Part shown: positions 51,764 to 63,075 of the stretch, in pieces
How positions within the stretch are numbered: position 1 is the first letter of the stretch
How the letters are laid out: every line of letters begins with the position of its first letter
Assembly: GCA_006503475.1 (NCBI GenBank)
Contig: RSEH01000189.1
Span: 29,088 to 93,087, forward strand
DNA length: 64,000 nt
Direction of reading: 5' to 3'
From: Stentor roeselii
Taxonomy: Eukaryota; Ciliophora; Heterotrichea; Heterotrichida; Stentoridae
The notes under the pieces: generated by a model
What the model was told of the DNA's origin: nothing
Seen by the model: only the letters and a program-made list of their open reading frames with translations
Database searches by the model: none
Translations under genes and position numbers: made by a program

Positions 51764-54025
51764 TCAACACAACGCAGGAGCATCATCTTTATGCTTGGTC
51801 ATATAATTCTCCAACTCCACATCATTTATAAAATTTTGCTTAAACTTGCTCCATTCCACAAATGAGCTTCTCAAAAAATCATCAGACCATTGTTTAGGAC
51901 AGTCAATTTCATTAGTCTTCGTCAAAAAAACTTTGAGTTTATTTAAAATCTCTTCAGAAAGCAGTGGAAAATGCTTCTTAGTCAAAATGAAAACTTTTAC
52001 CTCTGCACTTTCAGCGACTACTGAGAACTTCGCAGGGTCAGCCGAGATGAGTTCAAAGGAAACAGCGCGTTGATGTTCATGATGCGAGTTGGTATCAAGA
52101 AGTCCTTCAATAAGTGCACGTCCTCCAAAAAAATCCCCTTCTTTAAGAGGACTACACAAAATCCTATCTTTCTGAATGACCCTATCCTGAAGATTTTTCG
52201 GTAAATAAGGTTTAGCCTTTTGAAAGTCATTACTGAAATCGCCACTTAAGTTGTTTTTTCGATGTTTTTCTGGATTTTTGAAGACTTTTGGAGTTTTTGG
52301 CCGAATCTTGATGTTTGAGAATGGGTTGGCTTGAGGTGGTTTCGCGACGTAGCCTTCCCAGTAAAGACTGCATCTTCCTTTATAGATGATGTAAAGACCT
52401 CTGGGTTTTTCACCAAGTTCAATGATGACCTGGTCGATCTTGTAAAGGACTGGCTCGATGTTGGAGGCCAGGGGGATGAGACTGATGCTGTTACAGTCTT
52501 CGAAGAACGGAAGACTTTTGAAGAACAAGACCTTCCCAGTGATATCATTTTGCATCTCGTCAAGTAAAATTCGTTTGTAGTCCTGTTTGGAAATCGCCAA
52601 GACCATCGTTTTTTCACCTGCCACACAAGTCGCGCTTCTTTTAATGTTATCCGAAATGCCTTCACTCAGTAAAGCGAGTTCTCCAAAAGTTTCTCCGTCG
52701 TACATCGAGTTTATAATCAACTCAATATTTCCATAGTCAGGAGATTTTTTCACTATCAAAATAGACCCGCTTAAAATCACGAACATTGAATCTCCCACCT
52801 CGCCTTGTCGAATGATGATCTCTTCACATTCGTATTGTTTGTAAACTGCTGATTTTAACAACTTGAATCGAATTTCACCTGGAAACTTTGAAAAAAAAGG
52901 TAAATGTTTCAGGATTTTCTCTAGTTTTACGTAGTCTCGAGAAGTGGGTTCTTTTTGGAACTCGCTGAGAACTAGGCTTAATGTTCTTTCATTCAACCTC
53001 TTTGTTATGATTTTCTTTGAATATACTGGTTTAAGCTCTGGAGTTTTAAAGGAATTTGAAAGCTCTTCATGGATCTTTTCGATTTTTTTACGAATTTCGA
53101 TGTTATCTTCGAAGTCTTCTGATGCGAATCTTGGAGCATTTTCCAGTTTTTGTTGAACGAAGCCATCATATTTCCAGAGTGGAAAGTTAGTAGATATTGT
53201 TTCAACTATTGTATTATGACGGATTCTGATCATTCTATCAAAAATTCTCTTTTTTTCGATAATGTCTTCAAATGTCGCAAGTGCCTGTCTTGACTTATTC
53301 GGGTAATCAACTCCGAAGTTTTTTTTTGTAAGAATTTTTTTCTTCGTATTTTTTTTCTTAAAGTTTTGTCCTCGTGTTAAAGAATTTTCAAGACTGTTCT
53401 TCCCAGAGCATCTCGTACTTGGACCAGAGTTATTCCTCATTTTTCCTAAAGTCGCGATTTCCCCTACTTTGAACGGAAAAAGAGTATTCGGGTCCTTCAC
53501 AAACCTTAAATTTCTTTCATCTTCCATCAAAGACTCCCCCGGGAGAACATCTTGAAAGTTCTCTAAAGCCTCAGAGACCCTTCCAGCCCTGAACAAGGCC
53601 AAAGCCAAAAGTTGAAAAAAACTAGGCTGGGGGTCGATTTTCGTGACTTTTTCAAGTAAAGGAAGAGCTTTGAGGTAGTCCTGCCGAGTGATGTGACAAA
53701 TACTTGAGTTTATCAAAGCAGGAATGCATTCTAAAGACTGGAACTCGTCTAAAGCTCTGTTAATCAGCCCGATGCGCATGAGGCAGACTCCCAGGTTGTT
53801 CCTCAGCCCGACGTGGGACTCGTCGAGTCGAAGGCCTTGTCGATATAAAATGATTGCTTTGTCGAAGTCTCCTTTTAACCTTGAAGAGTATCCTTGTACC
53901 CAGTACCAAAGAGGGTCGTTTTCTTCAGGTTTTGATGAAGGAGGACGGATTTCGATTGGTTTTAAACACTTGTTTTCTATTAATTTGATGATTTCTGCAG
54001 AGTTCTGCTCGATTGACTCGGACAT
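51764..54025 (-). CDS. TPR protein with two cyclic-nucleotide-binding domains
   Basis: The 753-residue protein has an N-terminal TPR region (about 40-165: FDKAIILYRQGLRLDESHVG, NNLGVCLMRIGLINRALDEF), a basic linker, and cyclic-nucleotide-binding domains at about 370-490 and 500-700. The first has IIIRQGEVGDSMFVILSGSI and phosphate-binding FGELALLSEGISDNIKRSAT; the second is more divergent, with an inserted loop and FFGGRALIEGLL. There is no kinase or channel part. It may be a cAMP/cGMP sensor or scaffold. Start ATG 54025; stop TGA. It shares a 53-bp spacer with the divergent LITAF gene. Confidence 0.88.
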   Translation of the reverse strand: MSESIEQNSAEIIKLIENKCLKPIEIRPPSSKPEENDPLWYWVQGYSSRLKGDFDKAIILYRQGLRLDESHVGLRNNLGVCLMRIGLINRALDEFQSLECIPALINSSICHITRQDYLKALPLLEKVTKIDPQPSFFQLLALALFRAGRVSEALENFQDVLPGESLMEDERNLRFVKDPNTLFPFKVGEIATLGKMRNNSGPSTRCSGKNSLENSLTRGQNFKKKNTKKKILTKKNFGVDYPNKSRQALATFEDIIEKKRIFDRMIRIRHNTIVETISTNFPLWKYDGFVQQKLENAPRFASEDFEDNIEIRKKIEKIHEELSNSFKTPELKPVYSKKIITKRLNERTLSLVLSEFQKEPTSRDYVKLEKILKHLPFFSKFPGEIRFKLLKSAVYKQYECEEIIIRQGEVGDSMFVILSGSILIVKKSPDYGNIELIINSMYDGETFGELALLSEGISDNIKRSATCVAGEKTMVLAISKQDYKRILLDEMQNDITGKVLFFKSLPFFEDCNSISLIPLASNIEPVLYKIDQVIIELGEKPRGLYIIYKGRCSLYWEGYVAKPPQANPFSNIKIRPKTPKVFKNPEKHRKNNLSGDFSNDFQKAKPYLPKNLQDRVIQKDRILCSPLKEGDFFGGRALIEGLLDTNSHHEHQRAVSFELISADPAKFSVVAESAEVKVFILTKKHFPLLSEEILNKLKVFLTKTNEIDCPKQWSDDFLRSSFVEWSKFKQNFINDVELENYMTKHKDDAPALC

Positions 54026-56703: not shown

Positions 56704-59700
56704 ATGTCAAAACGATCCTTCAATGAATTTTCTCGAAAATTAAGCATCAACTACGGCCTGGAGCGTTTAAATCTTCACATCGAGAAGAATGCAATGCAAC
56801 AAGACAAAACTTTTTATGAGAACAAACAAATGCCAGGAATGGAAATACTTGAAAAATTTCTTCCTTTCAATCGCCACAGTTTTCCCTTCAAATGGGCAGT
56901 TTTATTATTTATCACAAACATCTACAACTGTTTCACAGTAGCTTACTTTATCGGCTTTGTAGGTTTTCCGAAAGGGACTTGGCTGGCGTTGGAGTCTGGG
57001 TTCGAAGTGGTTTTAATTGTTGACTTATTCTTAAGAGCTTTACTTAGAAATTGCTCTGGGTACAAACAAATGTGGTTTATTCATGAAGACTCGTCGATTT
57101 TTGCAGGGATTTGCTTGTTTTTCTCGTCTCTTCCGTACTCGATGTTGTGCTTGGCATATTCTCATAATTTAGAACACTGGGGAGTAGCATTGATCCGACT
57201 ACCAAAGCTCCTAAGAGGTGGTTCAATCCTGAAGTTTTTTACCAACATGAAGATAATCACAAGGAACAAAGGTTGGGTTTATGTTGACCTATTCAAATAC
57301 TTGCTATTCGGTCTGATAACGACTCACTTCTCAGCAATGCTTTTCCTTCTAGTAGACCGAATCCAAACCAACCCTGAGGACACAGGAAAGAGTTACGAAG
57401 AGACCTGGAAAGAAAAAGAATTCGATTCCTTCGAGATCTTCATGGACATCGAGTTCTGGGCTTTAGGCTCCTTAGCAAGTATCACGATTTCCTACATAAT
57501 TCCTTTAAGTTTACTTCAAAACACAGTCTGCGTGATTTTCATGATCCTGGGCAACACTCTTTTCGGTTCAGTATTCACAGCGATGACTTACAAACTAAAC
57601 AGAAAAAACGAAAGAAACTTGATAAGCAAGGAAAAATATCAACTCGCAAAGTACTGGACAAGTAAAAGAAAACTTCCAGATGACTTAAAAGTCCGAGTTC
57701 TGAATTTTTACAACATCGCTCATGACCGGTTTAACGAGACTTCTCAATTTCGCATTCTCGACGAGTTGCCATTGTCTTTAAAGACAGAAATCGCGATGTA
57801 CCTTTACAAAGACCTGATTCCTAAAGTGAAACTATTTGAATTAGGAGAGCCTTCTTTCATCATGGGCTTCGTCAGGCACCTCAAGCCTAAACTTTTCATG
57901 GCTGAGGATTTCATCGTTAGAAAAGGAGACCTCGCTAAAGAATTCTTCTTGGTCAACGTCGGGTCGGTCGAGGTGCTCACTGCTGACGACTCGACAACCA
58001 TTTGTATTTTAGAGCAAGGAGGGTACTTCGGTGAAATAGGAATTATTTTAAATATTTGTCGCACTGTTTCAGTTAGAGCGACTATTGCAACGATTTTAAC
58101 AAGTATCAGCCGTGAACATTTACTCAGTCTTTTGAAAAGTTTTCCTGAACATTTTCAGTACTTGAAAAAAGTTGCGGAACAGAGACTTAAGACTACTTCG
58201 AGTAGTGATATTGACAGGAATTATGATATTATTGAAGAATATTCGGACTTTGGAAGTAGCAGCTCGGGTGAAAGCGAATGCGACTTTTACGCTCCGGCTC
58301 AACACTGTGAAAAGAACTGGATAGAGAAGATTATTACTGTTGCTGAGTCGAAAGCGATTCCTTATCGGTATTTTATTGACCCTTTTTCTTACTTTTACTA
58401 TTTTTGGATCAGTTTATTGCTACTGTCGAATGTTTTTTACTTGTATTATATTCCTTTCGCAATCGCATTTTTAGATAGAGGCGGGCCAGTCTTGATGATT
58501 TTAGATGGGTGCTCGTTTGGGGTGTTCGTTCTTGATGTGTGGGTCTCGCTTCACTCAGCGATTTTCACGAAATTCGGGAATTTCGTTCATGATTCACATG
58601 AAATCCGGAAGGATTACTTTAACAGATTTTTTTTCCTTGACATGCTGAGCATTATTCCCTCTGACCTTTTTGCTTATGTCTTCAATCTTCACTTATACGT
58701 GATTATTTCAAGTAAAGTCCTCCGACTCTTTAAATTGAAAAGAATGTTTCAGGTGATAAGACAGATAAGATACCGACACTCAATGCTAAGATTCAGTTTT
58801 TTCGCATATATTCCAGTTATTTTTTACTTTTCACATCTGGCAGCGTGCTTCTTCATGTTAACCTGCAGACTCCAATACCGTTATTATCAGTTGATTGAAA
58901 ACATGAGGCCTTGTTACTTAAACGAGTACCAAAAAAACCACGATTTTTCCTTTTTAGACCTTCCAATTAACACCCAGTACATCGAGATGTGGTTTTTCAC
59001 AAGTTCAATTTTTTCCTCGAACACCTACAACATCGTGATTCCCACAAGTCCCTGTGAAAAAATCTTCGGAATGATTTTGCTGATCATCAGTCGCTCATTC
59101 ATCGCTTTTTTACTTGCAGAGTCCTCCAGTTTCCGAGGACTGGAAAATTCTTTGTATATCTCTGAAAAAGCAAAACTCAGCATCTACAAAGAATGGGTTT
59201 CGCAGCACCAGCTGCCCACTTCTCTGAAAAATCGCATCACAAATCACAACCGCCTCGTCTGGCACAAACTTCGAGGATACGAAGACTCAGAAATCATCAA
59301 AGACCTTCCAGAATCCTTACAAGTCGACATCAACTGTTACCTCTTCAAAAGTCTCATTCAAAGTGGTCTGTTTCCCAGTCATGAAGAAGGCTCAATTCGA
59401 GAAATTATAAAAAAATGTCAAATTTGTATTCAATGTGCTGGAGAAGTCATTTTGCAGGAAGGAGAACTTGGATTTGAAATGTTTTTTATTTTAGATGGAG
59501 AAGTCGAAGTGAGAAGCTCGAGTAGCTTTTTCACGGTTATTGGAAAAGGGAATGTTTTTGGAGAAATGGCCTTGATTAATAATGTGCCTTGTGTTCGAAA
59601 TGCTACTGTTGTTGCTGCTAGTGATGTCACTTTAGCTGTTTTAAATTCTGAAGATTTTTATGAAGTTTCTAGAGTTTTTCCTGAGTTTTGCAAATCGCTT

Positions 59701-62700
59701 CGGGTCCAGGCTGCGAAAAGAGAGGAGATTAATCAGCGAGATAGTTTGACTTGTAGTATTTTTTTGAATCCTCAGGGAAAAACACAGAATTTTAAAAATA
59801 TTTTGGATCAAAGTGTTGTAAATCATACTGAAATTAGAGAAAACTTTAGAAATTCTTATGATATTGCTTTGGACATTCAGGTAAGGGCTTCGTTTTTAGA
59901 TAAATTTTTGAGGTTTTATCAGTCGAGATATTCAGTTTTACCTCAGCTGGGTATGGGATTATGCATAATTATTTACTGTCCTCTTTACATCGCTTTCAAG
60001 TTATCCTCAACAGCAACTCTAGTCCTTCAAATGCTAAGCAGTTTAATATTTTTCCTATACTCCCTTTACTACTTCTACATCTACGTTCTTCTCCAAAGAC
60101 TAAACGAAGAAGCAATAGAAAACATTTTCCACGACTCAGCTCCAAGTTTTCCATTACTAAGAGTTGCCCACCACCTGATTCTAAGTCTTCCTCTCGAGTT
60201 AATCTTTGAATCATTCCCAAGATCCGGGTGGCTGAATCTTTTGTATTTATTGATTCGAGTGTCTTTTTACCCTTATCTGTTCGAATACATTGCAAGTCTC
60301 AAAGAAAGACTGGAGTTGATCCACATAGTCAAAACTTTTGAATCAATTTTTCACTTTATTCTTACAAGTCACATCCTTGCTTGCATTTACATCGAGTTGG
60401 CAGACTGGGAAGAGCAGAACTGGATAGTTTTCACTGCAAAACAACCTGGAAAGTTTAATTCTCAGTCATCGGTTTATATTTATAGTGCTTATTGGGCGTT
60501 TTCATGTCTTTCTCATGCATCTTTAGGAGATATTATTTCTCAGTCTAATACGGAAAAAGTATTTAATTCACTGGTTTGCATTTTAGGATGCTTTCTTTAT
60601 GCGTTTTTGTTTGGAAATATCTGCTCTTTGGTCTTTGGGTTCAGTTCGAAGCTCCGAAGTCGATTGTATACTTCTTATATTTTTGTTAATGACTTTATCA
60701 AGAAAAAAAGGGTGGAAAATCTTTTTAAAAGGCAGGTGTCGAACTATCTGAACTTCTTGTGGAGGGCGAATAAACGAGTTATTGATAGAGAAATTTTAAA
60801 ACAACTGCCTTTAAGTATCGCGACTGATGTTCAGATCTTTAAGTACTCTTTGGCTGTGAACAATTCTTTTATCTTTAAGGACCAGTTCAATAAAGTCAAT
60901 TATCCACTCATTAAGTCTATTTTTAGGCTGATGGAAATTCAGTTTTATCTTCCTGCTGATAATATTGTTAGGATTACTGATAAGTCAAGTGATTTGTTTA
61001 TTATTTTAGATGGAGAAGTAGATGTTATTCATTTGAAGGCTGATAGAATTATTAACTCACTTAGGTCGGGTGATCATTTTGGAGAAGTAAACTTCCTCCT
61101 AAAAACCGGCATCCGTTCCGCAAGTGTAATCGCAACAAGCATAAGTGAAATCGGTGTAATATCTAAAATCCACTTCGAGAAACTATCGCAAGCATTCGAA
61201 GACTGGTCCTCAAAATTACTAACTCTAGCAACCGATCGTTTAAAACATTCATTTTCCGTAGACTCACTAGAAAGAGTTCACGAAAAGTTATCAAAATACG
61301 AAAATTCCTTCAACAACGACCCAGAAGCAGTTCAAGTTTACATGAAAAGAGCAGAAAAACTAGTAACCGAGAAGCTGATCTCAAAAGAAAAAAAAATAAA
61401 CAAAAATCAATGGGACTGGCTGAATTTCATTCATTTAGCTTTTATCATCTACTCAGTCTTCTCTATTCCAGTCGAAATCGCATTGGACTACCCAGTGCAG
61501 AGTTACTTACTTTACTTAGAGTCCCTCGTCGTAATCGAAAGCTGCGGGTTTTTTTTACTCACCTGCCGACTGACGTTGTTACTGCGAATGAAACCTGAAA
61601 GTGACAGTCAAGAACTACTGAAATTATTTTACAAGAACTACGTGATTCATGATTTTCTAGCATGCTCTCCTTTTAATGTACTTTTTCCTGTGTTAGGAAT
61701 TGTGAAACCTGTTTCTTTGATTTATCTTCTGAGAATGGTGAGACTTGTTTCAGTCTTTCGTCTGCCAAGTTTGATTCACAAGTTCGAGCTTTATTTTAAA
61801 GAGTTTTCTGATGTCATCGGGGCTTTAAAAGCTATTTTTTTCATGTCAGTTTTAATGCATTGGTTCAGTTGTCTATGGTTTTTCAGTGTCGAAGCGCAGG
61901 AAGAGACTAATTCCTGGAAAGTGAAAGAAAACCTTGATAACAACGCGGAGTCTTCACATAAGTGGGTCAAGTCGATTTACTTTGTGATGAATGTGACGAC
62001 TGGGACTGGATTTTCAGATAGTTGGCCTGTGACGATAGTAGAGATCTGCCTTACAATGTTACTTATTTTAGTCGGGAACATCTTATTCGCCATTGCTTTT
62101 GGCCTGCTTTCGTCCATCAGCCAGTCAATAAAGCCGAAAACTGACTCATTACTTGAAAAATTTTCATCAGTTTTCAGCTTGTTGCAGAAATTCGGACTTT
62201 CCAGAGAGACATCTCCAAATATCATATCAAGACTAGAAGCTTACTACGCTTTTAACTCGTCGATTCTCAGTACTTTCGGATCACTGGACTTCAAAGTGCT
62301 TCATTTTCACCTGCCGAGTAACTTGGTTAACAAGATTGCAAGTGAGTGCAATAAACACATTCTCAGAAAAATGAATATTTTTAAGAATAAAGAGTTTGAA
62401 GAAGTCATTCAGCTTGTCAGTCTCTGCATGAGTCCTCGGGTTTACCTCCCTGGAGATTACATCTTGTATCAAAATGACGTCGGAGAAGAAATGTACTTTA
62501 TTGTCATTGGAAATGTCGACATAATCGCCCAGAACTCTGAAAAAGTTTTAAAAACTCTTGAAAAAGGAGAATATTTTGGAGAACTCGCATTAATTTATGA
62601 TACTAAAAGAAATAACTCAGTTGTTTCGAAAACTCTTTCTTTGCTTTACTTGTTAGAAAGTAAAGATTTTCGGAGAATCATCGGCGATTACCCTCGAGCT

Positions 62701-63075
62701 TTGCAGCAAATCGTTCTTGAGTCACGGTCGAGAAGGCCTGGTTATCATAATGATTCTCGAAAAGCTGGAAAAGAGGAAAATGAAGAAATTTTAAAAGCTT
62801 TGAATATTTTTCCTGCGAATATTAATCCTTTTTTTCAGAAGAAACCGAGACAGAAGCAAATGACAATTATTGGAGGAATGGAAAATGTCAATGCTGAACT
62901 TGCACGTGATCATTTCTTTCAGGGCAATGAACATGTTGAAATGCATAAAAGAAGACCTGGGTTTTTTATTGCTGATGAGAGGAGGTTCAGTCAGGAGTCA
63001 CTTGGAAAGGAACTGGTTTTGTCGAACTTCTCGAAGTTGAAGATGAAGTGGACTGTGGAGCAGATGAGTAATTAG
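56704..63075 (+). CDS. Four-repeat cyclic-nucleotide-gated-type channel in one polypeptide
   Basis: The 2123-residue protein contains four successive units of about 500 residues, each with a six-TM-like region, a C-linker and a cyclic-nucleotide-binding (CNB) domain. Pore regions centre near residues 257, 773, 1270 and 1765; CNB phosphate cassettes are at about 438 (YFGEIGIIL), 951 (FGEMALINNVPCVRNATV), 1458 (HFGEVNFLLKTGIRSASV) and 1956 (YFGELALIYD). C-linkers show LPDDLKVRV and DELPLSLKTEI-type strings. S4-like segments carry arginines in units 2 (KVLRLFKLKRMFQVIRQ) and 4 (LLRMVRLVSVFRL), few in 1 and almost none in 3. Only unit 4 has a K-channel-like filter, TGTGFSD. A pseudo-tetramer forming one channel is inferred, as in the four-repeat CNGK/tetraKCNG channels. 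No intron is needed. Confidence 0.88.
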   Translation: MSKRSFNEFSRKLSINYGLERLNLHIEKNAMQQDKTFYENKQMPGMEILEKFLPFNRHSFPFKWAVLLFITNIYNCFTVAYFIGFVGFPKGTWLALESGFEVVLIVDLFLRALLRNCSGYKQMWFIHEDSSIFAGICLFFSSLPYSMLCLAYSHNLEHWGVALIRLPKLLRGGSILKFFTNMKIITRNKGWVYVDLFKYLLFGLITTHFSAMLFLLVDRIQTNPEDTGKSYEETWKEKEFDSFEIFMDIEFWALGSLASITISYIIPLSLLQNTVCVIFMILGNTLFGSVFTAMTYKLNRKNERNLISKEKYQLAKYWTSKRKLPDDLKVRVLNFYNIAHDRFNETSQFRILDELPLSLKTEIAMYLYKDLIPKVKLFELGEPSFIMGFVRHLKPKLFMAEDFIVRKGDLAKEFFLVNVGSVEVLTADDSTTICILEQGGYFGEIGIILNICRTVSVRATIATILTSISREHLLSLLKSFPEHFQYLKKVAEQRLKTTSSSDIDRNYDIIEEYSDFGSSSSGESECDFYAPAQHCEKNWIEKIITVAESKAIPYRYFIDPFSYFYYFWISLLLLSNVFYLYYIPFAIAFLDRGGPVLMILDGCSFGVFVLDVWVSLHSAIFTKFGNFVHDSHEIRKDYFNRFFFLDMLSIIPSDLFAYVFNLHLYVIISSKVLRLFKLKRMFQVIRQIRYRHSMLRFSFFAYIPVIFYFSHLAACFFMLTCRLQYRYYQLIENMRPCYLNEYQKNHDFSFLDLPINTQYIEMWFFTSSIFSSNTYNIVIPTSPCEKIFGMILLIISRSFIAFLLAESSSFRGLENSLYISEKAKLSIYKEWVSQHQLPTSLKNRITNHNRLVWHKLRGYEDSEIIKDLPESLQVDINCYLFKSLIQSGLFPSHEEGSIREIIKKCQICIQCAGEVILQEGELGFEMFFILDGEVEVRSSSSFFTVIGKGNVFGEMALINNVPCVRNATVVAASDVTLAVLNSEDFYEVSRVFPEFCKSLRVQAAKREEINQRDSLTCSIFLNPQGKTQNFKNILDQSVVNHTEIRENFRNSYDIALDIQVRASFLDKFLRFYQSRYSVLPQLGMGLCIIIYCPLYIAFKLSSTATLVLQMLSSLIFFLYSLYYFYIYVLLQRLNEEAIENIFHDSAPSFPLLRVAHHLILSLPLELIFESFPRSGWLNLLYLLIRVSFYPYLFEYIASLKERLELIHIVKTFESIFHFILTSHILACIYIELADWEEQNWIVFTAKQPGKFNSQSSVYIYSAYWAFSCLSHASLGDIISQSNTEKVFNSLVCILGCFLYAFLFGNICSLVFGFSSKLRSRLYTSYIFVNDFIKKKRVENLFKRQVSNYLNFLWRANKRVIDREILKQLPLSIATDVQIFKYSLAVNNSFIFKDQFNKVNYPLIKSIFRLMEIQFYLPADNIVRITDKSSDLFIILDGEVDVIHLKADRIINSLRSGDHFGEVNFLLKTGIRSASVIATSISEIGVISKIHFEKLSQAFEDWSSKLLTLATDRLKHSFSVDSLERVHEKLSKYENSFNNDPEAVQVYMKRAEKLVTEKLISKEKKINKNQWDWLNFIHLAFIIYSVFSIPVEIALDYPVQSYLLYLESLVVIESCGFFLLTCRLTLLLRMKPESDSQELLKLFYKNYVIHDFLACSPFNVLFPVLGIVKPVSLIYLLRMVRLVSVFRLPSLIHKFELYFKEFSDVIGALKAIFFMSVLMHWFSCLWFFSVEAQEETNSWKVKENLDNNAESSHKWVKSIYFVMNVTTGTGFSDSWPVTIVEICLTMLLILVGNILFAIAFGLLSSISQSIKPKTDSLLEKFSSVFSLLQKFGLSRETSPNIISRLEAYYAFNSSILSTFGSLDFKVLHFHLPSNLVNKIASECNKHILRKMNIFKNKEFEEVIQLVSLCMSPRVYLPGDYILYQNDVGEEMYFIVIGNVDIIAQNSEKVLKTLEKGEYFGELALIYDTKRNNSVVSKTLSLLYLLESKDFRRIIGDYPRALQQIVLESRSRRPGYHNDSRKAGKEENEEILKALNIFPANINPFFQKKPRQKQMTIIGGMENVNAELARDHFFQGNEHVEMHKRRPGFFIADERRFSQESLGKELVLSNFSKLKMKWTVEQMSN

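What the first reader, a model, noticed from the sequence alone, without database searches (positions are those of the whole stretch)
56704..63075. A single 2123-residue polypeptide with four cyclic-nucleotide-gated channel units
Four six-TM/C-linker/CNB units follow each other at about 500-residue spacing with no stop or intron. Four-in-one CNG-type channels are known (sea urchin tetraKCNG, CNGK relatives), but here the units have diverged so far that each has a different pore, S4 and CNB cassette. This fixes the stoichiometry of what is normally a tetramer of separate subunits and would allow four non-equivalent nucleotide sensors in one channel of a large, contractile, excitable cell.
Basis: partly seen in the sequence, partly recalled or inferred. 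Interest (0 to 1): 0.85.

Follow-up and report, generated by a model that had tools for sequence, protein, structure and literature searches.

The report
Ciliate four-in-one cyclic-nucleotide-gated ion channel
One gene of a probably ciliate single-celled organism encodes what looks like a whole ion channel in a single protein chain with four nucleotide-binding parts, and its pore has lost the usual potassium-selecting motif that the one-unit relatives examined in the same genome keep.

Summary
Window 56704-63075 (+) is one unbroken frame of 2123 codons with four 6-TM/pore/C-linker/CNBD units about 500 residues apart. It belongs to a family: five more four-unit genes in the same genome (29-47% identical) and 22 other four-unit records in a protein search (one is the C59 gene itself, one is annotated in Blepharisma stoltei). 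In a tree of units from 12 of 27 proteins, each unit position is its own clade (support 100/99 or better), so the four-unit gene predates the family's divergence. Nearly all 27 proteins keep the cassette Glu and Arg in all four CNBDs. The residue after that Arg is Thr/Ser in units 1 and 3 (27 and 26 of 27) but seldom in 2 and 4 (5 and 2). The K+ motif G(Y/F)G survives in 8 of 108 unit filters, 0 of 4 in the window, but in 23 of 23 single-unit relatives examined from this genome. So it fails the pore criterion of animal CNGK channels. Most likely it is a single-chain, asymmetric, nucleotide-gated, non-selective cation channel; ligand, selectivity and role are inferred. A 2020 survey did not identify tandem CNBD channels in ciliates (PMC7576140).

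The parts
56704..63075 (+). single open frame, 2123 aa: four-unit CNBD channel
56836..58218 (+). unit 1 (residues 45-505): S1-S6, pore, C-linker, CNBD; S4 R165, K168, R171
57475..57495 (+). unit 1 filter heptad ASITISY (aligned to TTVGYGD)
57895..58140 (+). unit 1 CNBD Pfam stretch (398-479); T/S after the cassette Arg in 27 of 27
58201..58374 (+). unit 1-unit 2 linker (500-557), acidic and Ser-rich in most but not all relatives
58321..59739 (+). unit 2 (540-1012); S4 K671-R674-K677-R680
59014..59034 (+). unit 2 filter heptad SSNTYNI
59437..59667 (+). unit 2 CNBD Pfam stretch (912-988)
59905..61248 (+). unit 3 (1068-1515); S4 region with R1185 (27 of 27) and K1200 (26 of 27) only
60511..60531 (+). 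unit 3 filter heptad SHASLGD (His 25, Gly 27, Asp 25 of 27)
60943..61191 (+). unit 3 CNBD Pfam stretch (1414-1496); T/S after the cassette Arg in 26 of 27
61387..62733 (+). unit 4 (1562-2010); S4 R1677, R1680, R1686
61999..62019 (+). unit 4 filter heptad TGTGFSD (fourth-position Gly 24 of 27)
62437..62685 (+). unit 4 CNBD Pfam stretch (1912-1994)
62980..62991 (+). tail motif RRFS (2093-2096): Ser 26 of 26, Arg at -2 26 of 26, Arg at -3 23 of 26 (P0036 has no tail); resembles a PKA/PKG site (consensus recalled)

Best explanation
A pseudo-tetrameric ion channel in one chain: four CNBD-channel units fold around one pore in fixed order 1-2-3-4. Binding of cyclic nucleotide to the four non-equivalent CNBDs pulls on the C-linkers and opens the S6 gate. 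Units 1 and 3 carry the Thr/Ser that, from memory, suits cGMP; units 2 and 4 mostly do not (Asn in both in the window). The asymmetric filter, with no G(Y/F)G in the window's protein, most likely passes cations without K+ selectivity, so opening would depolarise the cell or admit Ca2+. The C-terminal RRxS may be phosphorylated by cyclic-nucleotide-dependent kinases. Shown: one frame, four units, cassettes with Glu and Arg, lost K+ motif, conservation across a family. Inferred: pore assembly, gating by nucleotide, lack of selectivity, phosphorylation.
For: Four Ion_trans and four cNMP_binding stretches. Each unit's profile matches solved CNBD channels, best E 3.3e-58, 3.5e-56, 5.9e-49, 3.5e-56 for units 1-4. 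1-5 residues between the predicted S4 and S5 helices in all units, in line with the short linkers of CNBD channels (PMC7576140, passage). Cassette Glu in 27, 27, 27, 26 and Arg in 27, 26, 25 (two Lys), 26 of 27 proteins for units 1-4; T/S after the Arg in 27, 5, 26, 2. G(Y/F)G in 8 of 108 unit filters, 0 of 4 in the window, against 23 of 23 single-unit channels examined. Pore helix plus filter is better conserved than S5 and S6 in every unit (38.6, 36.8, 50.0, 41.9% mean pairwise identity against 28.5-36.4% for S5 and 30.9-39.3% for S6; 24 proteins), which does not look like decay, though the filter was not measured apart from the pore helix. Each unit position is one clade. The genome has 77 guanylate-cyclase-domain and 56 PDE matches.
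Against: No electrophysiology, transcript or whole-chain structure. Two-unit models have pTM 0.57 and 0.54, so the relation between units is not predicted with confidence. Zebrafish CNGK has four CNBDs yet is gated by pH and not by nucleotides, and in sea urchin CNGK only the third CNBD is thought to work (PMC4749565), so intact-looking cassettes do not prove nucleotide gating. Some relatives keep near-canonical filters (P0021 TSIGFGD in unit 1 and TSLGYGD in unit 4; fragment P0006 TGLGYGN in unit 1, not in the 108), so selectivity may differ in the family. Loss of GYG can also mean a poorly conducting pore. HCN channels have Thr after the cassette Arg yet prefer cAMP (recalled), so the cGMP reading is weak.
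Confidence: 0.55

Rival explanations
1. A K+-selective four-repeat channel of CNGK type: nucleotide binding hyperpolarises the cell.
For: Same four-repeat CNBD architecture; CNGK is described as pseudotetrameric with a CNBD in each repeat (PMC4749565, passages). Unit 4 keeps the first filter Gly in 24 of 27, unit 3 the second in 27 of 27.
Against: CNGK pores carry GYG or GFG; here 0 of 4 in the window and 8 of 108 in the family, while 23 of 23 single-unit relatives examined keep it.
Confidence: 0.15
2. A voltage-operated channel whose CNBDs only modulate it, or hold an intrinsic ligand as in KCNH.
For: Unit 2 has a regular S4 (K671, R674, K677, R680 positions basic in 24-27 of 27) and its profile's best solved match is KCNH2.
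Against: The unit 3 S4 region has one conserved Arg and one Lys. The cassettes keep Glu and Arg in nearly all proteins.
Confidence: 0.17
3. A non-conducting nucleotide or voltage sensor: the pore has decayed and the protein signals through its cytosolic parts.
For: The unit 1 filter has Gly at the two motif positions in only 4 and 5 of 27. The CNBD is the best-conserved part of units 1, 2 and 4.
Against: Pore helix plus filter is better conserved than S5 and S6 in every unit. Unit-specific filter residues are kept, e.g. unit 3 His and Asp 25 of 27 each.
Confidence: 0.1
4. Assembly or prediction artefact: several neighbouring single-unit genes read as one.
For: None found; transcripts could not be examined, and the protein search admits only proteins of 0.55-1.75 times the query length, so split relatives would not be listed.
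Against: No stop in 2123 codons; the same four-unit frame in five other genes of the genome, in records from other sources and as one annotated B. stoltei protein (P0033).
Confidence: 0.02

Closest known systems
CNGK / tetraKCNG (sea urchin, zebrafish, choanoflagellate four-repeat channels)
   Same: Four 6TM-CNBD repeats in one chain.
   Different: CNGK carries GYG/GFG in the pore; sea urchin CNGK is gated by one cGMP at repeat 3, and zebrafish CNGK by pH (PMC4749565, passages). Here the motif is mostly gone and all four cassettes keep Glu and Arg. Descent from CNGK was not tested.
[quoted passage not shown]
   Same: Tandem CNBD-channel units within the SAR supergroup.
   Different: Two repeats, filters TVGYG or close; [quoted passage not shown]
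CNG (CNGA/CNGB), HCN, KCNH, SthK-type single-unit channels
   Same: Fold, C-linker, CNBD, short S4-S5 gap.
   Different: Separate subunits. CNGA/CNGB are known members without GYG (recalled; the CNGB3 record P0008 reads ITIG-GL).
Four-domain Cav/Nav channels
   Same: Four homologous six-TM domains in one chain with unequal filters (recalled).
   Different: No CNBD (recalled). Cav-like frames of this genome score 150-197 bits per match to Ion_trans; the window's whole chain scores 90.1.
P0037, EukProt g544.t1
   Same: Four CNBD-channel units in one 2788-aa chain.
   Different: EF-hands; filters LTVGFGD, STVGYGD, VVVVIGD, STVGYGD; distant (23% identity over 16% of the query).

Membership tests
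CNBD-channel superfamily (CNG/HCN/KCNH) | 6TM pore unit followed by C-linker and CNBD | tested here: met
   (profiles of all four units)
CNBD-channel superfamily (CNG/HCN/KCNH) | short S4-S5 linker (under 10 residues, PMC7576140) | tested here: met
   4, 2, 5 and 1 residues between the predicted helices in units 1-4
CNGK (four-repeat K+-selective CNG) | four 6TM-CNBD repeats in one chain | tested here: met
CNGK (four-repeat K+-selective CNG) | GYG or GFG selectivity motif | tested here: not met
   0 of 4 in the window, 8 of 108 in the 27 proteins
CNGK (four-repeat K+-selective CNG) | common descent with animal/choanoflagellate CNGK | not tested
   no CNGK sequence was at hand; the 1~3 and 2~4 pairing reported for CNGK is unresolved here: U1+U3 65/65, U2+U4 p-AU 0.472
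CNGK (four-repeat K+-selective CNG) | K+ selectivity | not testable with these tools
   needs electrophysiology
nucleotide-binding CNBD | cassette Glu and Arg (recalled as key contacts) | tested here: met
   Glu 27, 27, 27, 26; Arg 27, 26, 25, 26 of 27 for units 1-4; all eight present in the window
Cav/Nav four-domain channels | no CNBD, closest relation to Cav/Nav domains | tested here: not met
   four CNBDs; after the paralogues, one search lists frames of 622-800 codons, of which those on C54, C76, C374, C310 and C215 I read as CNBD channels, and none of the 1400-1860-codon Cav-like frames

The most novel reading that the evidence does not exclude
A ciliate-lineage transduction channel in which one chain combines two kinds of nucleotide sensor in alternating positions (1 and 3 cGMP-type, 2 and 4 of another kind) around a pore built from four different filter segments: a single-molecule coincidence detector for two cyclic nucleotides, and the missing cGMP-gated conductance of heterotrich light avoidance.
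Probability: 0.15. Interest if true: 0.88.

Novelty: new variant of a known kind. Interest (0 to 1): 0.62.

Why it matters
Four-repeat CNBD channels were described from animals and choanoflagellates (PMC7576140, PMC4749565; passages read). A conserved family of several genes in a probable ciliate genome, with a member in Blepharisma stoltei, widens that range. It also offers natural concatemers in which one unit's filter, S4 or nucleotide site can be changed alone, so the roles of single subunits in gating and selectivity become directly testable. Stentor light avoidance has been linked to cGMP (PMC4588039, passage read); I know of no molecular identity for a cGMP-gated channel there (recalled, not searched exhaustively), and these genes would be candidates if the organism is a heterotrich.

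Tried and rejected
Hidden tiny introns: of six loose GT[AG]..[CT]AG stretches of 15 or 16 bases in the frame, none has the GTAA..TAG form; the window as a whole shows no excess of either form over shuffles. The alignment to P0002 needs only 1-2-residue gaps.

Lone freak gene: rejected.

P0005 as a distant four-unit protein: rejected, one unit and a long low-complexity tail.

Order of the four units' origin: unresolved (U1+U3 65/65; U2+U4 p-AU 0.472; the tests of U1+U2 and U3+U4 did not finish). In the quick tree of 79 rows the four unit clades stand together with 84, and long branches meet among P0037 units and outgroups. The careful tree of 68 rows left out all four P0037 units, P0005, P0008 and five single-unit rows; there all unit rows are separated from all 19 single-unit rows with 98/93. 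Both trees are unrooted. Of the 27 four-unit proteins 12 were used, plus unit 1 of P0006.

C88: one search lists its match in two pieces with one TAA inside the second; the TAA is the gene's own stop, which the match overruns by one codon (frame of 2020 codons).

Fold comparison: Foldseek's best for units 1-2 is HCN4 (6gyn_A, E 5.4e-19, but TM-score only 0.29 by query and 0.49 by target). The rows for units 3-4 span only unit 4, so unit 3 is untested by fold; it is covered by sequence profile.

Four-fold pore by prediction: not done; the whole chain exceeds the stated single-chain limit, and no model coordinates were laid in the box.

Organism: the Stentor genome paper is not held; no rRNA comparison was made.

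Rows dropped: the 27 proteins are the six own-genome genes and 21 database proteins (P0002, P0003, P0018-P0036). P0001 (the window itself) and P0017 (identical to C59) were left out; P0018, P0035 and P0036 also in the conservation averages. The 108 filters hold near-copies (P0034, P0035, P0036 at 84-90%; C59 and P0018 at 81%). The 23 single-unit channels come from 20 loci taken in rank order from the Ion_trans list (C295, with a stop, skipped), so they may lean to canonical pores. admits only proteins of 0.55-1.75 times the query's length, so split relatives would be missed; score only the best candidates.
Full report

The family. The search with the single chain gave an identical record, a 71% and a 46% identical protein over 100 and 99% of the length, and two partial matches (P0004, P0005). 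The search with seven aligned sequences returned 27 proteins: 23 four-unit proteins of 1918-2163 aa, one distant four-unit protein with EF-hands (P0037), and three ATP:ADP antiporters that share a CNBD. Of the 23, one is the window's own, one the C59 copy; P0030 lacks its N-terminal part and P0036 its tail. P0033 is an unnamed protein product of Blepharisma stoltei, a heterotrich ciliate. The own genome holds five more genes: C59 (47%), C7 (37%), C92 (34%), C15 (31%) and C88 (29 and 34% in two pieces), each one open frame of 2020-2143 codons.

The units. In the careful tree (68 rows, 440 columns; 12 of the 27 proteins) units 1, 2, 3 and 4 are each one side of a branch with support 100/99, 100/100, 100/100 and 100/100, and all units are separated from 19 single-unit rows with 98/93 (quick tree of 79 rows). 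So the four-unit gene arose before these paralogues and species diverged, and all 27 proteins examined still hold the four units. The search's length limits would hide split relatives. The order of the internal duplications is not resolved. Descent from animal CNGK was not tested.

The sensors. Over 27 proteins the cassette Glu is present in 27, 27, 27 and 26, the Arg in 27, 26, 25 (two Lys) and 26, for units 1-4. The residue after the Arg is Thr or Ser in 27, 5, 26 and 2; in units 2 and 4 it is most often Leu or Met, and Asn in the window. From memory, Thr or Ser there favours cGMP in CNG channels and PKG, but HCN channels have Thr and prefer cAMP. So the pattern shows that sensors 1 and 3 differ from 2 and 4 and only suggests which ligand. 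In sea urchin CNGK only the third CNBD is thought to work, and zebrafish CNGK answers to pH in spite of four CNBDs (PMC4749565, passages).

The pore. Aligned to TTVGYGD the window reads ASITISY, SSNTYNI, SHASLGD, TGTGFSD. G(Y/F)G is present in 8 of 108 unit filters: unit 1 of P0021, P0034, P0035 and P0036, unit 3 of P0033, unit 4 of C59, P0018 and P0021. The fragment P0006, not in that count, has TGLGYGN in unit 1. All 23 single-unit CNBD channels read from the same genome have the motif; they were taken from the top of a score list. The loss does not look like general decay: mean pairwise identity of pore helix plus filter is 38.6, 36.8, 50.0 and 41.9% in units 1-4, against 28.5-36.4% for S5 and 30.9-39.3% for S6 (24 proteins), and single residues are held (unit 3 Gly 27 of 27, His and Asp 25 of 27; unit 4 Gly 24 of 27). 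S4 is regular in unit 2, has three conserved basic positions in units 1 and 4, and in unit 3 only R1185 and K1200.

Other conserved parts. The C-terminal tail has a motif with Ser in 26 of 26, Arg at -2 in 26 of 26 and at -3 in 23 of 26, which resembles the PKA/PKG consensus (recalled). Among the best 150 CNBD matches of the genome many lie in frames of about 850-930 codons; one frame of 988 aa reads by eye as a CNBD-kinase. The linker between units 1 and 2 is acidic and Ser-rich in most members but not in P0034-P0036.

How it most likely works. One chain makes the pore. Cyclic nucleotide, for which the genome has many makers and breakers (77 cyclase-domain and 56 PDE matches), binds up to four unequal sites, moves the C-linkers and opens the gate; the asymmetric filter passes cations with little K+ preference. 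In CNGA/CNGB, absence of GYG goes with non-selective conduction (recalled). The step from sequence to selectivity is the weakest one. Stentor light avoidance has been linked to cGMP (PMC4588039, passage), but nothing here ties these genes to light.

Literature. PMC7576140 (passages) reports four-repeat CNGK in metazoans and choanoflagellates, two-repeat tandems in dinoflagellates and oomycetes, and states that tandem channels were not identified in ciliates. My searches listed no paper that I recognised as describing a four-unit CNBD channel in a ciliate; I saw titles, abstract starts and some passages only, and the library holds open-licence papers only.

Verdict. It is like CNGK in architecture but fails CNGK's pore criterion. 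New variant of a known kind.

Noticed in passing
51764-54025 (-): A 753-aa protein with TPR repeats and a cyclic-nucleotide-binding domain lies about 2.7 kb before the channel's start.
   Followed up: no
G000 C391:143038-145864 and C54:53597-55490: PDE matches lie within 1.5 kb of single-unit CNBD channel matches at two places. PMC8670190 (passage) reports PDE and Ion_trans genes always adjacent among four Euplotes subgroups.
   Followed up: no
G000, many contigs: 77 guanylate-cyclase-domain matches, most of them two per frame of about 1900-2300 codons, and 56 PDE matches: a very large cyclic-nucleotide repertoire.
   Followed up: partly
G000 C55, C97, C131, C502 and others: Frames of 1400-1860 codons with up to four strong Ion_trans matches each, Cav-like.
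   Followed up: no
G000 C488:50723, C130:29604, C80:59337, C85:56990: Frames of 2618-2715 codons with a partial Ion_trans match (later part of the profile); nature unknown.
   Followed up: no
P0006 and P0009: Shorter records that begin with unit-1-like sequence and run into the start of a second unit: probably further members of the family; P0006 filter TGLGYGN.
   Followed up: partly
P0037 (EukProt g544.t1): A 2788-aa four-unit CNBD channel with EF-hands and mostly canonical filters in another protist.
   Followed up: partly
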